In this document: piece after piece, positions 26,581 through 49,048 of the stretch
How positions within the stretch are numbered: the stretch's first letter is position 1
Layout: the number at the start of each line of letters is the position of its first letter
Source of the DNA: Puccinia triticina
Lineage: Eukaryota > Basidiomycota > Pucciniomycetes > Pucciniales > Pucciniaceae
Assembly (NCBI RefSeq): GCF_026914185.1
Contig: NC_070568.1
Span: forward strand, 3,182,001-3,246,000
DNA length: 64,000 nt
Reading direction: 5' to 3'
The notes under the pieces: generated by a model
Database searches by the model: none
What the model was told of the DNA's origin: nothing
What the model saw: the letters and a program-made list of their open reading frames with translations, nothing else
Made by a program: the position numbers and the translations under genes

Positions 26581-26900
26581 CACTGCAAGAAAAACTCTAG
26601 AAACTGCTTGCAGTTGTGATGCAGCAAGCTTCAAACAAGCTTCAGCTCAAGCTGGAGTCAAGCACCCAAATTCCGTGCTGGTGCAACTTGAGTGTGTACC
26701 TTGTTCAGCATCTCAATGTTGAACATGCTGTAGTGCTCATGCAGTAGGCTGAGGCAAATGAGCATCCCCCTGAGCACCCTTCCATTCCCTTTTATTGAAC
26801 AATCCATGCACCATTGAATCCAGCCAGAATAACATAAAAAGGGTATGTACACATGAAAGGGATATGTACAGATGAAAGAACTATGTATGCATGAAAGGGG

Positions 26901-27529
26901 CAACAGTGCAAGAGCTACGCTACAAAAAGCGGCAGCGTAGCAAAAGCGTAGCGGTTTTAGCCTTGCTTCGCTAAGCTTTTTGTAGCGGACTTGGCGCTTC
27001 GCTATTCGCTACATTTTTTAAGGGGAAAAAATTAAAGAAAATAGCACGCTTTTTTTAGCGCAGAGTAGCGGCAATTCGCTACGCTTCTCGCTATAGTAGC
27101 GGAAAAAACGCTACTGTAGCGATTTTGCTGCGCTACCATAGCACCAGTCAAACATCAATACTGCACATCATAAAATGATGGAGGATTGATGTTTGTGTAC
27201 TATTTCTGGCATTTTCCACCAAAAGGCAGAGATGCCCGCTACACTTTTGACACAGAAGCGACCCGGTTCGCTACGCTTTTGGCGCTAAAAAGCGCTATTA
27301 GCGCCAAAAAGCGTCAATTTTTCCGCTGCGCTATACTGTAGCGAAGCGGCAAAAAAAGCGCTTCGCTACGCGCAGGCCAAAACTGCAGTAGCGGTTCTGG
27401 CGCTTCGCTACTGCTCAAAGTAGCGATTTTCCGCTAGCGCTAACGCTATTCTGGATCCAGAGTAGCGTGTTTCCGCTTCGCTACGCAAAAGCGCCGCTTT
27501 TTGTAGCGAAGCGTAGCTCTTGCAGTGTT
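26901..27529. mobile_element. hAT-type palindromic MITE, TAGCG-rich
   Basis: 629 bp with ends CAACAGTGCAAGAGCTACGC and, inverted, CAACACTGCAAGAGCTACGC. It is flanked by GAAAGGGG on both sides (26893-26900 and 27530-27537; one base may belong to the repeat). The whole interior is made of 'gtagcg' and 'cgctac' motifs and can fold extensively. It sits in the 'gaaagggg' minisatellite of the outer element. Confidence 0.75.
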
Positions 27530-27539
27530 GAAAGGGGAA

Positions 27540-28062
27540 TGTGAGGAGGTGTATAAACACATAAGAGGGATATGTACACATGATGAAAGGGGTATGTATG
27601 CATGAAAGGGGTATTTATGCATGAAAGAGGTATTTATGCATGAAAGGGGTATTTATGCATAAAAGGGGTATTTATGCATAAAAGGGGTTTGTGCAGAAGG
27701 GGTATTTGCACATGAAAGGGATATGTAAACATGAAAGGGGTATGTAAACCTGAATGATAAAAGGGGTTTTAAAAGGGATCAAAAAAAGTCAAAGGGGACA
27801 TGTAAACATGAAAGGGTCATGAACACATGATGAAAGGGGTATGTACACATTGTGAAAGGGATACATGCACATGAAAGGGATATACACACATGAAAGGGGT
27901 ATGTGCACATAAAGGGCTATGTACACATTATGAAAGGGGTGAATGCATACAAAAGGCATATATGCACATGAAAGGGGTATGTGCACATGAAAGGGGTATG
28001 TGCACATGAAAGGGGTATGTGCACATGAAAGGGGTATGTGCACATGAAAGGGGAATTTGCAC
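27540..28062. repeat. Minisatellite, unit about 19-21 bp (atgaaaggggtatgtgcac)
   Basis: More than fifteen imperfect copies. The last five or six, 27,960-28,055, are nearly identical; the same units appear before the nested hAT at about 26,838-26,900. Open frames here simply reflect the repeat. Confidence 0.85.
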
Positions 28063-29444
28063 AGGTATCAACTCCTGCACTTAGTTTTTTGTACCTCAGA
28101 CTCACTCTTGCATAAATTAGACAATGTGCATGGAATCAATCAGTGCTTGATTCTTGCATGAGGCACAGCTTGCCTTGAGCTCTTGCATCTCAACTGCAAG
28201 CAGTTTCTAGAGTTTTTCTTGCAGTGATGATGGCTTGTTCCCAATCATGTTTTTCTCATTTTTTTTGGCCTAACCAGGATTCACATTAAACCTTGTTAAA
28301 TTCAATTTCCAAAACTTACTGCAGCTTTCAATTGATTTCAAACTGTCAAACTTAGAGTCAATTTAGCTGACCTAAAGTCTGCCTATATCATTTATTTCTA
28401 CATGAATTGTCTCATAATTTTTTTAGCTCAATATTGAACCTTGTTTTGACTTTATATTCTGTTTCTTCAAGCAGTTTCAACCATATTCTTCACTGACTAC
28501 TTTTAAATAGATCAACTCCTTCATAGATTTTGGTGTTTCTCAAAGCCCATGCACACCCCCGCCACATAGATGAAACAGAGCATACCAACCACATGTGAAT
28601 ATTTAATTATTTAAGAAAACTGTGAAATGTTTCTCCCACATGCAGCTGGAGAATACACAGACTTCAGACTACCAGAGCCACACACTCAGACAAACCAGGA
28701 TCAAGGGTGAGAAATTCTGTTACAGTACATTACAGGGGCCCTTTTGGATACTGTAACTTTTTTTTAGTTATCCAAATGGTCCATTTGAGTAACATAATTG
28801 TTTTTTTTGGTTAATGTAATGTAATGTGGCATTTTTTTTATTTTTTTGCGTTTTTGGATAATGTACCTGCTAAGTTTTGTAACATATTTTCAAAACAAAA
28901 TTGCATTTGCATATTGAGTTTAGTGTACACCACCACTCAATAAATTTTGAATCAGCGCGTGGGCTTGGCTGTGGGGTCAGGAACAGGTCTGGCATGACCT
29001 CTTCTTGCTTTTCACGACAGAGACGCTTCAACGCAGGCGATGGGTCAGAACTACGTGGGCATCCGACCCACATGTCAAGCAAACACCGCTGACACATTTG
29101 TCGGCATGTCACGTGGGTCAATCAGGGGTCATGGATTTTTAATCAAGTGACCTGGATGCGCCTCTTTTGCTGTAAGAAAGAGGCTACACAGTTCAAAATT
29201 TTACAAAAAAAAAAAAGTAAAACAAACAAACATGTCAAGAAGAAAAGCCTCCAAACTTTACAGGAATACATGCTTTGCTGTCTATATACAATAAACAGGG
29301 AAGTTTGGTAGAATGTGTTGTGCTGTAGCAATTAGTGGTGGCGTTATGGCCTGGCCAAGGGTCGTGGCTGGCGTTTGGGTCCCAATGAGTGAGCTTTTTT
29401 GATGGGCAAGCTTGATGACCAGCCAACACCCTGCACTGTTTTGT

Positions 29445-45885: not shown

Positions 45886-46891
45886 TCATAATCATTCTTA
45901 GGAACTTATTTTCCACCCCTGTAGCCAATCTCATGACTTAACGGCTGTGGCCTGAGCTTCTGAATTCAAAAATGTGGTGCCAAAAACATTAGATGACCCA
46001 CTGTACAGACTAGAGTACTCCAAGTCAATTGGAGTGCAGAACTGGGGACTCAAGACTCTTTGGAGTGCACCACAAAGAACTCCAGTGGCCAGGAAATGTA
46101 ATGAGTGCCCATGAGTCTCACTCCATCAGATTGGAGTGCATATCCCCAGCACTCCATTCCTGATATTTCTCCTCCTCAAAAGGGGAGTGCAGTACTGTGC
46201 ACTCCAGCCAGAGCTGGAGGGCCTACAACTTCAACCGGGCTATGTACAAACACACCCCACTTGATCCTCCTGATATCCATGACCATTACAGACCGGCATT
46301 GAGCAGATTAACATCTCCTCTCAATGACCGCCGGTCATTGAGGGAAATCACACCTCTTGATGACCGGTCTGTGCCGGTCATCGAGGGGAGTAACATCTCC
46401 TCTTGATGACTGGTCTGTGCCGGTCACCAAGGGGACTCACACCTCTCAATGACCGGCGCGGACCGTTCACACCTCCCAATGACCGGCACAGACCGGTCAT
46501 TGAGGGGACTCACACCTCAATGATTGGTCACACCGGTCATCAAGGCTAATAACACCTCTTGATGACCGGTCATCAGCGGTCATTGAGAGGTCTCACACCT
46601 CTCGATGATTGGTCAGACCGGTCATCGAGGGGACTCACACCTCTGGATGACTGGTAATCACCGGTCATCGAGGTGAGTCACATTTCTTGATGATTGGTCA
46701 GTCCGGTCATCAAGGGTAATAACACCTCTCAATGACCGGTGTGTACCAGTCATTGAGGGGAGGTGCTATTCTCAATGAACGGTTGGTCTGACTGGTCATC
46801 AAGAGGAGGTGCTACTCCTCTCAGTGACCAGCACATGTTGAAATTACTCAGGTGAAAAGAATTGTGTGTTGTGGGATTTGAACCCACAACC

Positions 46892-47488
46892 AGCGGTGGG
46901 CAGATACGTTACAGTACGTTACGGTGGTCATTTTGGATACCGTAACTTTTTTGAATATCCAATTTGCTTTGTTTTGGATAACGTAACCCCACTATGCAAG
47001 TAAAGTAACGTACTGTAACTAAATTTCCTATGCCAGTTTTTACAGCCCCAATAACGTACCGGTGTGGTGATTACTGCACCCGTAACTTAAATTTGGCGCG
47101 TTACGATACCCGTAACTTAAATTTGGCGCGTTACGATACCCGTAACTTAAAATACAGCGCTTTTATGGTCCTGGTGGGAACCGGGGTCCAAAAAACCTTG
47201 ATTAATGAGCGACAAAGCGGGGAATTGAACGCGCGGAGCGCAGCAGAGGCAGCAGGCACCAGACTGACCCCTGCTGACTCGACTATATCACATTGTTCAA
47301 GGCACTGGATAACGAATAAGTAGTACAGTTACGATACCCGTTATCGTAACTGGTCCTGTGTTACCCCCATATTTGAATTGGGTAACGTACTCGCTCCCCC
47401 AGTTATCCGTAACTAGGCGATAACGTAACGTAATTAGTTACGTTACGGGCAGCGTTACCCAGATGGGTAACGTATCTGCCCACCGCTG
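46892..47488. mobile_element. hAT-type MITE of the 'GTTAC' family nested in the LTR
   Basis: 597 bp, ends AGCGGTGGGCAGATACGTTA and the complement, with perfect duplications CCACAACC (46,884-46,891 and 47,489-47,496). It contains three direct repeats of 'cccgtaacttaaatttggcg' type (47,080-47,150). A minus-strand tRNA-like stretch has a B box CGTTCAATTCC (near 47,222-47,232) and an A-box-like ATATAGTCGAG (near 47,279-47,289). Confidence 0.88.
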
Positions 47489-47858
47489 CCACAACCTTCT
47501 ACATTCATGAGAGCTGCTCTTATACCACTGAGCTAAACACACAGTTGGTCTTGCTGGTGATTTTTGGATATTAGATCATATAGCTTGGCCCCCTCAAATG
47601 GGGCTTGAGGCATATATTCCAACACACCCCTTTGCTTCATGCACCATGAACAAACTATGAATATTGCATATGCAAATCATGTATGTTTGTCATGCATCAT
47701 AGATAATGATTAATGCATAACAATTATGAAAATTGAATATTGCATATGCATATGGAAGCATGAATATCAAGTATTCACAGGGTTTAGCCAACTTTAATTC
47801 AATTCACTGAGAGCATCCGTACTGATAATGTGTTGAAATTACTCAGGTGAAAAGAATT

Positions 47859-47932
47859 GTGTGTTGTGGGATTTGAATCCACAACCTTCTACATTCATGA
47901 GAGCTGCTCTTATACCACTGAGCTAAACACAC
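47859..47932 (-). ncRNA. tRNA-like module in the LTR
   Basis: 74 nt fold as a cloverleaf outline: acceptor GTGTGTT/AACACAC (7 bp), D arm GCTC/GAGC around AGTGGTATAA, T arm GTGGA/CCCAC around TTCAAAT (GTGGG in the other LTR copy). The anticodon stem is poor (GCTCT/GTAGA) and the anticodon cannot be read safely, so it is likely a Pol III promoter module rather than a translation tRNA. The same module is split by the hAT insertion in the other LTR. Confidence 0.7.
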
Positions 47933-49048
47933 AGTTGGTCTTACTGGTGATTTTTGGATATTAGATCATATAGCTTGGCCCCCTCAAATGGGGCTTGAAG
48001 CATATATTCCAACAGCACAGACCGGTCATTGAGGGGACTCACACCTCTTGATGACCGGTGATTACCGGTCATTGAGAGGACTCACACCCCCCGATGACTG
48101 GCACAGACCGGTCATCAAGAGGACTCACACCTCTGGATGACCGGGCAACACCGGTCATTGAGGGGACTCACACCAGCTCACACCTCTCGATGACCGGTCA
48201 GACCGGTCATTGAGGGGAAGTGCTACTCTTGATGACTGGTCTGTGCCGGTCACCAAGGGGAGTAGCACCTCCTCTCAATGACCGGTCAGACTCAGACCAA
48301 CCGGTCATTGAGAATAGCACCTCCCCTCGATGCCTGGTACACACCGGTCATTGAGAGGTGTTATTACCCTTGATGACCGGACTGACTGGTCATTGAGAAA
48401 TGTGACTCACCTCAATGACCGGTGATGACCGGTGATCCAGAGGTGTGAGTCCCCTCGATGACCGGTCTGATCAATCATCGAGAGGTGTGAGTCCTCTTGA
48501 TGACTGGTCTGTGCTGGTCATTGGGAGGTGTGACTGATGACCGGTCCGCGCCGGTCATCGAGAGGTGGGAGTCCCCTCAATGACCGGTAAAGACCGGTCA
48601 TCAAGAGTAGCACCTCCCCTCAATGACCGGTCATCACCGGTCATTGAGAGGTGTGACTGATGACCGGTCCGCGCCAGTCATCGAGAGGTATGAGTCCTCT
48701 GGATGACCGGTTGTGTGCCCCTTGATGACCGGTCCAGACTGGTCATTGAGAGGTGTGATTGCTGTGGGCACTCCAAAAAAAAAGGAGACTTGGAGTGCAC
48801 CCCAATGTGTGAGAATTGGAAGACTTAAAGGTTTATTTCACATTGAGTCAGGATACGAGTGATATACAGTTTATGGTAAAGTAAAAAGAAAAGAGGAGAC
48901 TGGTGGTGTACCTTAAAGGGCAGGGTACAATTTAGTATGGCACAAGTGTATAGAGTATAAAAAAAAAGGAGTAGCGCGTGACGGGCTTTTAAGGAAAAGG
49001 GGATAGCTGAGGTACGTTGCGAGGTCGTTGTACAATAGCTGATGATAA

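What the first reader, a model, noticed from the sequence alone, without database searches (positions are those of the whole stretch)
46836..48014. Miniature LTR retroelement with a tRNA-like Pol III module inside each LTR
Each 184-bp LTR holds a 74-nt cloverleaf-like sequence with a perfect 7-bp acceptor stem, D arm and T arm. The element has a 206-bp internal region, a purine tract and a 5-bp TSD, but no genes. Plant Cassandra elements carry 5S rRNA promoters in their LTRs; a tRNA counterpart in a fungus would be a parallel way to have Pol III drive a non-autonomous LTR element.
Basis: partly seen in the sequence, partly recalled or inferred. Interest (0 to 1): 0.85.

Follow-up and report, generated by a model that had tools for sequence, protein, structure and literature searches.

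The report
Rust-fungus mini-retroelement with tRNA-like promoter
A tiny gene-less retroelement of a rust fungus carries a tRNA-like promoter in its ends; that kind is already described (Helenus), but the promoter's first box is also an exact landing site for a family of DNA transposons, which I have not found described.

Summary
A 574-bp TRIM lies on the minus strand: 184-bp LTRs, 206-bp internal region, PBS, PPT, TSD GCACA. A 598-bp hAT7-like element splits its left (3') LTR. The right LTR holds an Rfam tRNA match (45.1 bits; cut-off 29). The genome search gave 211 first-look LTR candidates.

The interpretation fits but is not new: tRNA-containing TRIMs, "Helenus", 113 families in rust fungi, were published in 2024 (PMC10886601). 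All defining features testable here are met. Pol III transcription is untested, and A/B-box conservation within the family is not significant (P=0.08).

Two further results seem unreported in my searches:

(1) The 14-nt PBS pairs fully with two spliced tRNA-Ile(AAT) genes only if wobble A34 is inosine. C stands there in 65 of 67 PBS-like sites, many related by descent. Some non-TRIM sites look like Copia elements.

(2) EnSpm/CACTA elements insert at one exact site in the A box: 15 such insertions seen in this TRIM. Two short families also hit tRNA-like repeats genome-wide (24/35 and 15/30 sites versus 11/400 and 8/600 controls). One 13.5-kb element encodes a tnp2 transposase and a Tet-like oxygenase.

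The parts
46831..46835 (.). target site duplication GCACA, left
   Evidence: identical to 48015-48019
46836..46890 (-). 3' LTR, outer part (LTR positions 130-184)
   Evidence: 98% identical to the same part of the other LTR; joined lengths give 184 bp, 3 differences in all
46884..46890 (.). 7-bp TSD CCACAAC of the nested element, left
   Evidence: read
46891..47488 (.). nested hAT7-like non-autonomous DNA element, TIR CAGCGGTGGGC, inserted within the tRNA-like module of the 3' LTR
   Evidence: 143 first-look candidates in the genome, 40 scored; exact 7-bp TSDs at the 3 of 5 sister loci in which the script found both ends
47489..47495 (.). 7-bp TSD CCACAAC of the nested element, right
   Evidence: read
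47496..47624 (-). 3' LTR, inner part (LTR positions 1-129)
47625..47637 (-). polypurine tract AAGCAAAGGGGTG next to the 3' LTR
   Evidence: sequence
47625..47830 (-). internal region, 206 bp, non-coding
47817..47830 (-). primer-binding site CATTATCAGTACGG; 14 nt pair with spliced tRNA-Ile(AAT) nt 27-40 if A34 is inosine
47831..48014 (-). 5' LTR, 184 bp
47850..47853 (-). T4 (TTCTTTTC) just after the tRNA-like module; only T-run of 4 or more in this LTR's sense strand; possible weak Pol III terminator
47858..47932 (-). tRNA-like module (RF00005, 45.1 bits)
47869..47879 (-). B box (GATTCAAATCC here; GGTTCAAATCC in the other LTR)
47915..47925 (-). A box TAGCTCAGTGG
47919..47921 (-). TCA within the A box: the 3-bp target of 15 EnSpm/CACTA insertions seen in sister copies (empty in this copy)
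48015..48019 (.). target site duplication GCACA, right

Best explanation
[quoted passage not shown] Most likely mechanism: TFIIIC binds the A and B boxes in the 5' LTR and Pol III starts just upstream of the tRNA-like module. Some transcripts read through the weak T4 stop, cross the internal region and end at the same T4 in the 3' LTR, which gives an RNA with a repeated R of roughly 80-95 nt. A Copia-type element supplies reverse transcriptase and integrase. Synthesis is primed on the PBS by the anticodon arm of mature (spliced, A34-to-inosine) tRNA-Ile, and the cDNA is integrated with 5-bp duplications. Shown here: anatomy, copies, TSDs, the PBS match to tRNA-Ile gene sequence, and the same PBS in other places that look like Copia starts. 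Inferred: transcription, R, the inosine, and the helper. Side effect shown here: the A box is an exact target of EnSpm/CACTA transposons.
For: LTRs, TSD, PPT and internal region. tRNA match over the Rfam cut-off (58.5 bits in a sister copy). tRNA called by ARAGORN in 28 of 30 LTR loci. Single LTRs with exact 5-bp TSDs in 12 of 13, larger arrangements in 7 of 11. The 14-nt PBS matches two tRNA-Ile(AAT) genes at C8 except at position 34. The 7 tRNA-Ile genes found by two patterns that allowed A or G at position 34 all have A (the patterns required an intron of 16-46 nt), while 65 of 67 PBS-like sites have C opposite it. Of 10 sampled sites not among the listed internal copies, 9 are directly preceded by CA as an LTR end would be, 1 by GA, and both gag-like starts tested hit DUF4219 below Pfam's cut-off. 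T4 lies 4 nt after the module, as in two of the reference tRNA hits (L065, L066), and 17 of 23 distinct internal regions have no T-run of 4 or more. Kojima 2024 reports the same anatomy and a Copia partnership for fungal Helenus.
Against: No expression data. Within this young family the A and B boxes are not significantly more conserved than the rest of the LTR (P=0.19, 0.20, together 0.08), and the non-tRNA tail of the LTR is as conserved as the boxes (0.016 against 0.019). The intact LTR of the window copy has a substituted B box, and its own internal region has a T4. Reference tRNA hits more often have T5-T8 stops (17 of 26; T4 first in 4; none within 45 nt in 5), so whether T4 stops Pol III here is open. 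No LTR pairs or polymerase genes were looked for at the other PBS sites, and no Copia with matching internal sequence was identified. A primer with G34 (for example an organellar tRNA-Ile) or a tolerated A-C mismatch is not excluded.
Confidence: 0.75

Rival explanations
1. The tRNA-like part is a passive passenger: a SINE or tRNA copy that landed in an ancestral LTR; the element is transcribed by Pol II like its Copia helper.
For: Box conservation within the family is not significant and the LTR tail is as conserved; one LTR of the window copy has a damaged B box; no transcript data.
Against: The module keeps a full-length tRNA match and a T4 directly behind it, and Kojima reports box motifs conserved across Helenus families. 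EnSpm elements hit its A box as they hit other tRNA-like repeats, though that may be DNA sequence recognition only.
Confidence: 0.2
2. The module is maintained for another job than a promoter, for example RNase P/Z processing of the RNA, packaging, or chromatin insulation by TFIIIC.
For: Near-complete tRNA shape with acceptor, D and T arms.
Against: No test available; the anticodon arm is degenerate in the model alignment.
Confidence: 0.1
3. The LTRs spread working tRNA genes.
For: ARAGORN names it tRNA-Phe in 28 of 30 LTR loci.
Against: The anticodon stem does not pair; the Rfam alignment would instead place TGA as anticodon (my reading); Kojima reports isotype disagreement for many Helenus families.
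Confidence: 0.03
4. The concentration of EnSpm insertions in tRNA-like sequence is only a by-product of how common such repeats are, or of MITE-bearing repeats multiplying as a unit.
For: Several target contexts recur: 65 sites fall into 21 contexts by single linkage, so the sites are not all independent.
Against: Only 11 of 400 and 8 of 600 random window pieces score as high; 17 of 21 contexts contain a high-scoring site, 8 contain the same +7 position, and in 3 of these both MITE families sit there; the two 112-bp families align over no more than 16 nt; the TRIM's own insertion sites score 0 of 17. In L069 and L029 one LTR is intact and the other interrupted; in L073 both LTRs are interrupted, but by inserts in opposite orientation; in L072 both, by different elements.
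Confidence: 0.05

Closest known systems
Helenus (TRIMp3), Kojima 2024, PMC10886601
   Same: TRIM size, tRNA-like part in the LTR, PBS to the anticodon arm of a tRNA (Ile among those used by fungal families), PPT, 5-bp TSD, Copia helper proposed, abundance in Puccinia
   Different: Nothing essential. Family-level identity (e.g. Helenus-2/9/11/11B_PTrit, tied to predicted Ser-TGA genes) could not be checked because the sequences are in supplements or Repbase. In the main text 'inosine' and 'termination' do not occur and 'terminator' occurs once, about Cassandra
Cassandra
   Same: TRIM with a Pol III promoter in the LTR
   Different: Cassandra carries 5S rRNA sequence and is a plant group; here tRNA-like, in a fungus
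[quoted passage not shown]
   Same: CAC..GTG termini, 3-bp TSD, transposase and a Tet-like oxygenase in the long element that splits one copy of this TRIM
   Different: That paper's main text has no occurrence of 'tRNA', 'Helenus', 'target-specific' or 'insertion site'
Dada DNA transposons, PMC3706591
   Same: DNA transposon inserted at a fixed position in small-RNA genes, tRNA among them
   Different: Dada makes 6-7-bp TSDs and encodes another transposase; here 3-bp TSD and tnp2
Ty1/Ty3/TRE retrotransposons at tRNA genes (review PMC5911963: seen only in the search listing, details recalled)
   Same: Pol III genes as targets
   Different: they integrate near the gene, not inside the A box, and are retroelements

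Membership tests
Helenus | Two LTRs around a short non-coding internal region | tested here: met
   184 + 206 + 184 bp, TSD GCACA
Helenus | tRNA-derived sequence in the LTR with A and B boxes | tested here: met
   RF00005 45.1 bits in the window, 58.5 bits in a sister; A box TAGCTCAGTGG; B box GGTTC in one LTR, GATTC in the other
Helenus | PBS and PPT present; in fungi mostly a PBS to a tRNA anticodon loop | tested here: met
   14-nt match to spliced tRNA-Ile(AAT), position 34 only if read as inosine; PPT at 47625-47637
Helenus | 5-bp TSD in fungi | tested here: met
   window copy, and 12 of 13 single LTRs
Helenus | Length 311-1263 bp | tested here: met
   574 bp without the nested insert
Helenus | Functional Pol III promoter (proposed, not proven by the author) | not testable with these tools
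   no expression data
Helenus | Sequence identity to a named family | not testable with these tools
   consensus sequences are in supplements and Repbase, which were not available
Cassandra | 5S rRNA-derived sequence in the LTR | tested here: not met
   only the tRNA family is hit
EnSpm/CACTA (elements inserted in the A box) | CAC..GTG termini and 3-bp TSD | tested here: met
   exact 3-bp TSD at 30 of 35 and 23 of 30 sites of the two 112-bp families; for those in the TRIM
EnSpm/CACTA (elements inserted in the A box) | tnp2-type transposase in a long member | tested here: met
   L129, PF02992 33.9 bits, cut-off 28.6; one long element only
Dada | 6-7-bp TSD | tested here: not met
   3-bp TSDs
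hAT7 (nested element in the window) | 7-bp TSD | tested here: met
   window copy and the 3 of 5 sister loci with both ends found
hAT7 (nested element in the window) | hAT transposase in the family | not tested
   element is non-coding; no partner sought

The most novel reading that the evidence does not exclude
A lineage of EnSpm/CACTA DNA transposons in this rust, with a Tet-like oxygenase gene in a long member, has acquired site-specific insertion into the A box of tRNA-type Pol III promoters. Self-copying tRNA-promoter retroelements (Helenus) serve as a constantly renewed, harmless landing pad: one mobile element made of a promoter breeds the target of another.
Probability: 0.75. Interest if true: 0.7.

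Novelty: new member of a known kind. Interest (0 to 1): 0.5.

Why it matters
The retroelement itself adds one more family to Helenus, or repeats a catalogued one. What goes beyond it: (1) a DNA transposon superfamily for which my searches listed no site-specific targeting hits one site in the Pol III A box, which offers an evolutionary readout of which tRNA-like repeats are recognised as Pol III promoters, or of A-box sequence. (2) A PBS that fits the tRNA-Ile genes only after splicing and A34 editing would make the primer's modification state readable from genomes.

Tried and rejected
Looked for stronger conservation of the A/B boxes within the family: lower diversity, but not significant. 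Checked whether the first tRNA-Ile type found was the primer: by reading it matched 12 nt but not the last 2 of the 14-nt PBS. That led to the prediction of another isoform with stem CCGTA/TGCGG, which was then found twice with 0 control hits. An intronless gene with more of the TRIM's sequence was sought too; the hits listed sit at TRIM-like and other PBS places by position and were not all read. Checked whether any CAC..GTG element targets tRNA-like sequence: no. Three unrelated ones (window 26581-28226, L010, L017) score 14, 13 and 12 (rows lying in the palindromic array around the TRIM were dropped as artefacts). The hAT7-like family that interrupts the window copy shows no tRNA-like targets at the three sister sites scored (13, 13, 12). 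Functional tRNA and chance-insertion readings rejected as above. One palindromic copy (C17:2340250-2341018) has no TSD, against the two that do. Puccinia triticina is a guess from 18 contigs and 122.8 Mb.

Full report
WHAT IS THERE. The stretch 46836-48014 holds a small LTR retroelement on the minus strand: 5' LTR 47831-48014, internal region 47625-47830 (206 bp), 3' LTR 46836-46890 plus 47496-47624, flanked by the 5-bp duplication GCACA. The LTRs are 184 bp each and differ at 3 positions. A 598-bp element with inverted ends CAGCGGTGGGC and a 7-bp duplication CCACAAC (46891-47488) is nested in the 3' LTR, inside the tRNA-like part. Of five sister loci looked at, the three in which the script found both ends (L002, L004, L005) also have exact 7-bp duplications. 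This fits the hAT7 group of Kojima 2025 (PMC12730594, passages read). The whole lies in an array of ~43-bp palindromic units, about 46320-48750.

tRNA-LIKE MODULE. Rfam's tRNA model matches 47858-47932 on the minus strand with 45.1 bits (cut-off 29), the only family over its cut-off in the window. A sister copy scores 58.5. ARAGORN calls a tRNA in 28 of 30 LTR loci of the family (the window's locus is one of the two misses, and some loci are the two LTRs of one element) and none in the window. The acceptor arm is 7 bp (GTGTGTT/AACACAC), D and T arms are present, and the anticodon arm does not pair. The unbroken window module has GATTC in place of GGTTC in its B box. A T4 (TTCTTTTC) follows after 4 nt and is the only T-run of four or more in that LTR. 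Of 23 distinct internal regions 17 have none and 6 have one; the window's own is among the 6. In 26 tRNA hits used as host reference (some may be organellar or pseudogenes; 4 Helenus-like hits left out) the first T-run of four or more within 45 nt is T5-T8 in 17, T4 in 4, absent in 5. A leaky T4 would let Pol III read from the 5' LTR to the 3' LTR, as described for Cassandra in PMC10886601 (passage); this is inference.

COPIES. The LTR gave 211 first-look candidates, of which the best 40 were scored, all 97-100% identical. The internal region gave 54 candidates, 40 scored. Of 13 copies taken as single LTRs 12 have exact 5-bp TSDs; of 11 larger arrangements 7 do. Over 95 distinct LTR pieces (39 full) diversity is 0.061 in LTR positions 1-81, 0.032 in the module, 0.019 in the A box, 0.019 in the B box and 0.016 in the tail 159-184. 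Against random sets of LTR columns the boxes give P=0.19 and 0.20, together 0.08, so selection on the boxes is not shown.

KNOWN KIND. Kojima 2024 (PMC10886601; abstract, Results, Discussion and the figure/table section read) named such elements Helenus: TRIMs with tRNA-like sequence in the LTR, 113 families in Pucciniales, 5-bp TSDs in fungi, PBS mostly to the anticodon loop of a tRNA, proposed to be mobilised by Copia. Every feature testable here is met. Pol III transcription is unproven there and here. P. triticina families tied to predicted Ser-TGA genes (Helenus-2, -9, -11, -11B) are the likeliest match if the host is that species, because my reading of the Rfam alignment also puts TGA at the anticodon; the sequences could not be compared.

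PRIMER. The PBS is CATTATCAGTACGG. Five tRNA-Ile genes of one type share 12 nt with it by reading. A second isoform predicted from the PBS itself, with stem CCGTA/TGCGG, was then searched and found twice, with no hit of the reversed control pattern, and ARAGORN calls both tRNA-Ile(AAT) with introns. Both patterns allowed A or G at position 34 and required an intron of 16-46 nt; all 7 genes have A. With the intron removed, all 14 nt pair except position 34, where the gene has A and the PBS has C. A34 of this tRNA is normally edited to inosine, which pairs with C (established knowledge, not tested here). Of 67 genomic sites fitting CATTATYAGTACNG, 65 have C and 2 have T; the reversed control gives 8. 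By position 26 of the 67 are internal copies of this TRIM listed, so the sites are not independent. Of the other 41 (a few adjoin or resemble the TRIM) ten were fetched: nine are directly preceded by CA, as an LTR end would be, and one by GA. Several read into what looks like a gag start; the two tested match DUF4219 below Pfam's cut-off (18.5 and 20.5 bits, cut-off 27). So the PBS is shared with elements that look like Copia, without their LTR pairs or polymerase having been examined. A G34 primer such as an organellar tRNA-Ile is not excluded.

A BOX AS TRANSPOSON TARGET. I saw 15 insertions of elements with CAC..GTG ends at LTR positions 94-96 (TTAGCTCA|GTGG) of this TRIM. Nine have the 3-bp duplication in print; in one of these, the first insert in L073, the LTR beyond the insert is deleted to position 74. 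Three more have ragged or cut ends (L116, L118, L119). Three are long spans between matching ends: C17:2087920-2101409 (13.5 kb), C6:3614567-3626818 (12.2 kb; carries pieces of what looks like a Gypsy-type element) and C11:3566222-3595817 (29.6 kb, interior not read). For the last two the TRIM's own 5-bp duplication (AATAG, GGTGC) is intact on both outer sides. At least three different short families are involved: two of 112 bp, which align over no more than 16 nt, and one of about 335 bp. The 13.5-kb element encodes a tnp2 transposase (PF02992, 33.9 bits, cut-off 28.6) and a Tet-like oxygenase (PF20515, 104.8 bits), as in the TET+ EnSpm elements of PMC12730594. These interruptions were found by following breaks near position 94 in the search, so they show recurrence, not a rate. 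Others lie at positions 82-84 or 75-77, beside the module (L072, L079, L145, L011). In L069 and L029 one LTR is intact and the other interrupted; in L073 both LTRs are interrupted by 335-bp inserts in opposite orientation; in L072 both, by different elements.

TEST ON ALL TARGETS. To avoid that bias I took the short elements alone as queries. Of 41 full-length places of the first 112-bp family I scored 35; four in this TRIM, one with an imperfect end (fetched, L127) and one neighbouring copy (not fetched) were left out. Of 41 places of the second family I scored 30; two in this TRIM and nine incomplete matches were left out (one of the 30, L145, proved to lie in a TRIM copy too). Exact 3-bp duplications: 30 of 35 and 23 of 30. 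Empty sites were scored for an A box followed by a B box (recalled consensus). The threshold of 15 was set after seeing the first family; the second family is the replicate. Scores of 15 or more: 24 of 35 and 15 of 30, against 11 of 400 and 8 of 600 random window pieces, 2 of 350 shuffles and 7 of 228 flank pieces (Fisher for the second family about 1e-16). Exactly 7 nt into the A box: 9 of 35 and 13 of 30. The 65 sites fall into 21 sequence contexts by single linkage; 17 hold a site scoring 15 or more, 8 hold a +7 site, and in 3 of these both families do; the TRIM's own insertion sites score 0 of 17 and three hAT7-like sites 13, 13 and 12. ARAGORN calls a tRNA in 19 of 65 empty sites and 0 of 600 controls. 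Other insertions lie around the A box or further into the tRNA-like part, and some sites score no better than controls, so the preference is strong but not absolute. Three other CAC..GTG elements show no such target. Whether the transposase reads A-box DNA or a Pol III factor is unknown; the fixed position favours DNA reading.

LITERATURE ON THIS. Dada transposons (PMC3706591; abstract, outline and one Discussion section read) target small-RNA genes but make 6-7-bp TSDs. Searches for CACTA/EnSpm/Plavaka with tRNA genes listed no title or abstract start reporting such targeting; PMC12730594 has no occurrence of 'tRNA' in its main text. For inosine at a PBS one search listed none that I recognised; those papers were not opened. 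Only the open-licence library was searched, so absence there is weak evidence.

VERDICT. The given finding is correct but of a described kind; its own interest is low. The transposon targeting and the inosine-fitting PBS raise it.

Noticed in passing
G000:C10:3314171-3314701 (L013/L014) and G000:C16:2536061-2537673 (L018/L019): Palindromic copies of the TRIM with two outward 3' LTR (U5) ends and exact 5-bp TSDs (CCCGC, GTCTG), as if snap-back first-strand cDNA had been integrated; a third (C17:2340250-2341018) has no TSD. One paper search listed nothing that reports it by title or abstract start.
   Followed up: partly
G000:C11:3566222-3595817 (ends in L124/L123): A 29.6-kb span between EnSpm-type ends splits one TRIM LTR at the A box; its interior was not read.
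   Followed up: no
L128 4211-5724: Within the 13.5-kb EnSpm element, two open frames show weak Cupin_8 similarity (below cut-off), one also JmjC: a possible second oxygenase gene.
   Followed up: no
window 46320-48750: Array of ~43-bp palindromic units (ATGACCGGTC...CCGGTCATCGAG) into which the TRIM inserted; similar units lie inside an 879-bp CAC..GTG element in L011.
   Followed up: partly
window 26581-28226: A 1646-bp element with CACTGCAAGAAAAACTCTAG ends and 3-bp duplication ATG, CACTA-like, not in a clear tRNA-like target (score 14).
   Followed up: no
G000:C2:3012499-3013414 (L031): Tandem TRIM copies sharing a central LTR (LTR-internal-LTR-internal-part LTR). Kojima 2024 mentions tandem arrays for one fish family.
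   Followed up: no
L064, L084, L101, L117, L138: Another tRNA-like repeat (GTGTACTTAGCTCAATGG...), probably a second Helenus family, with a second B-box-like stretch; in L084, L101, L117 and L138 it is hit by EnSpm-type elements at the A box.
   Followed up: partly
G000:C18:1859271 (L096) and G000:C9:2778378 (L105): Two copies of the first 112-bp MITE sit, by position, between matches to the hAT7-like element, in the same tRNA-like context (score 15).
   Followed up: no
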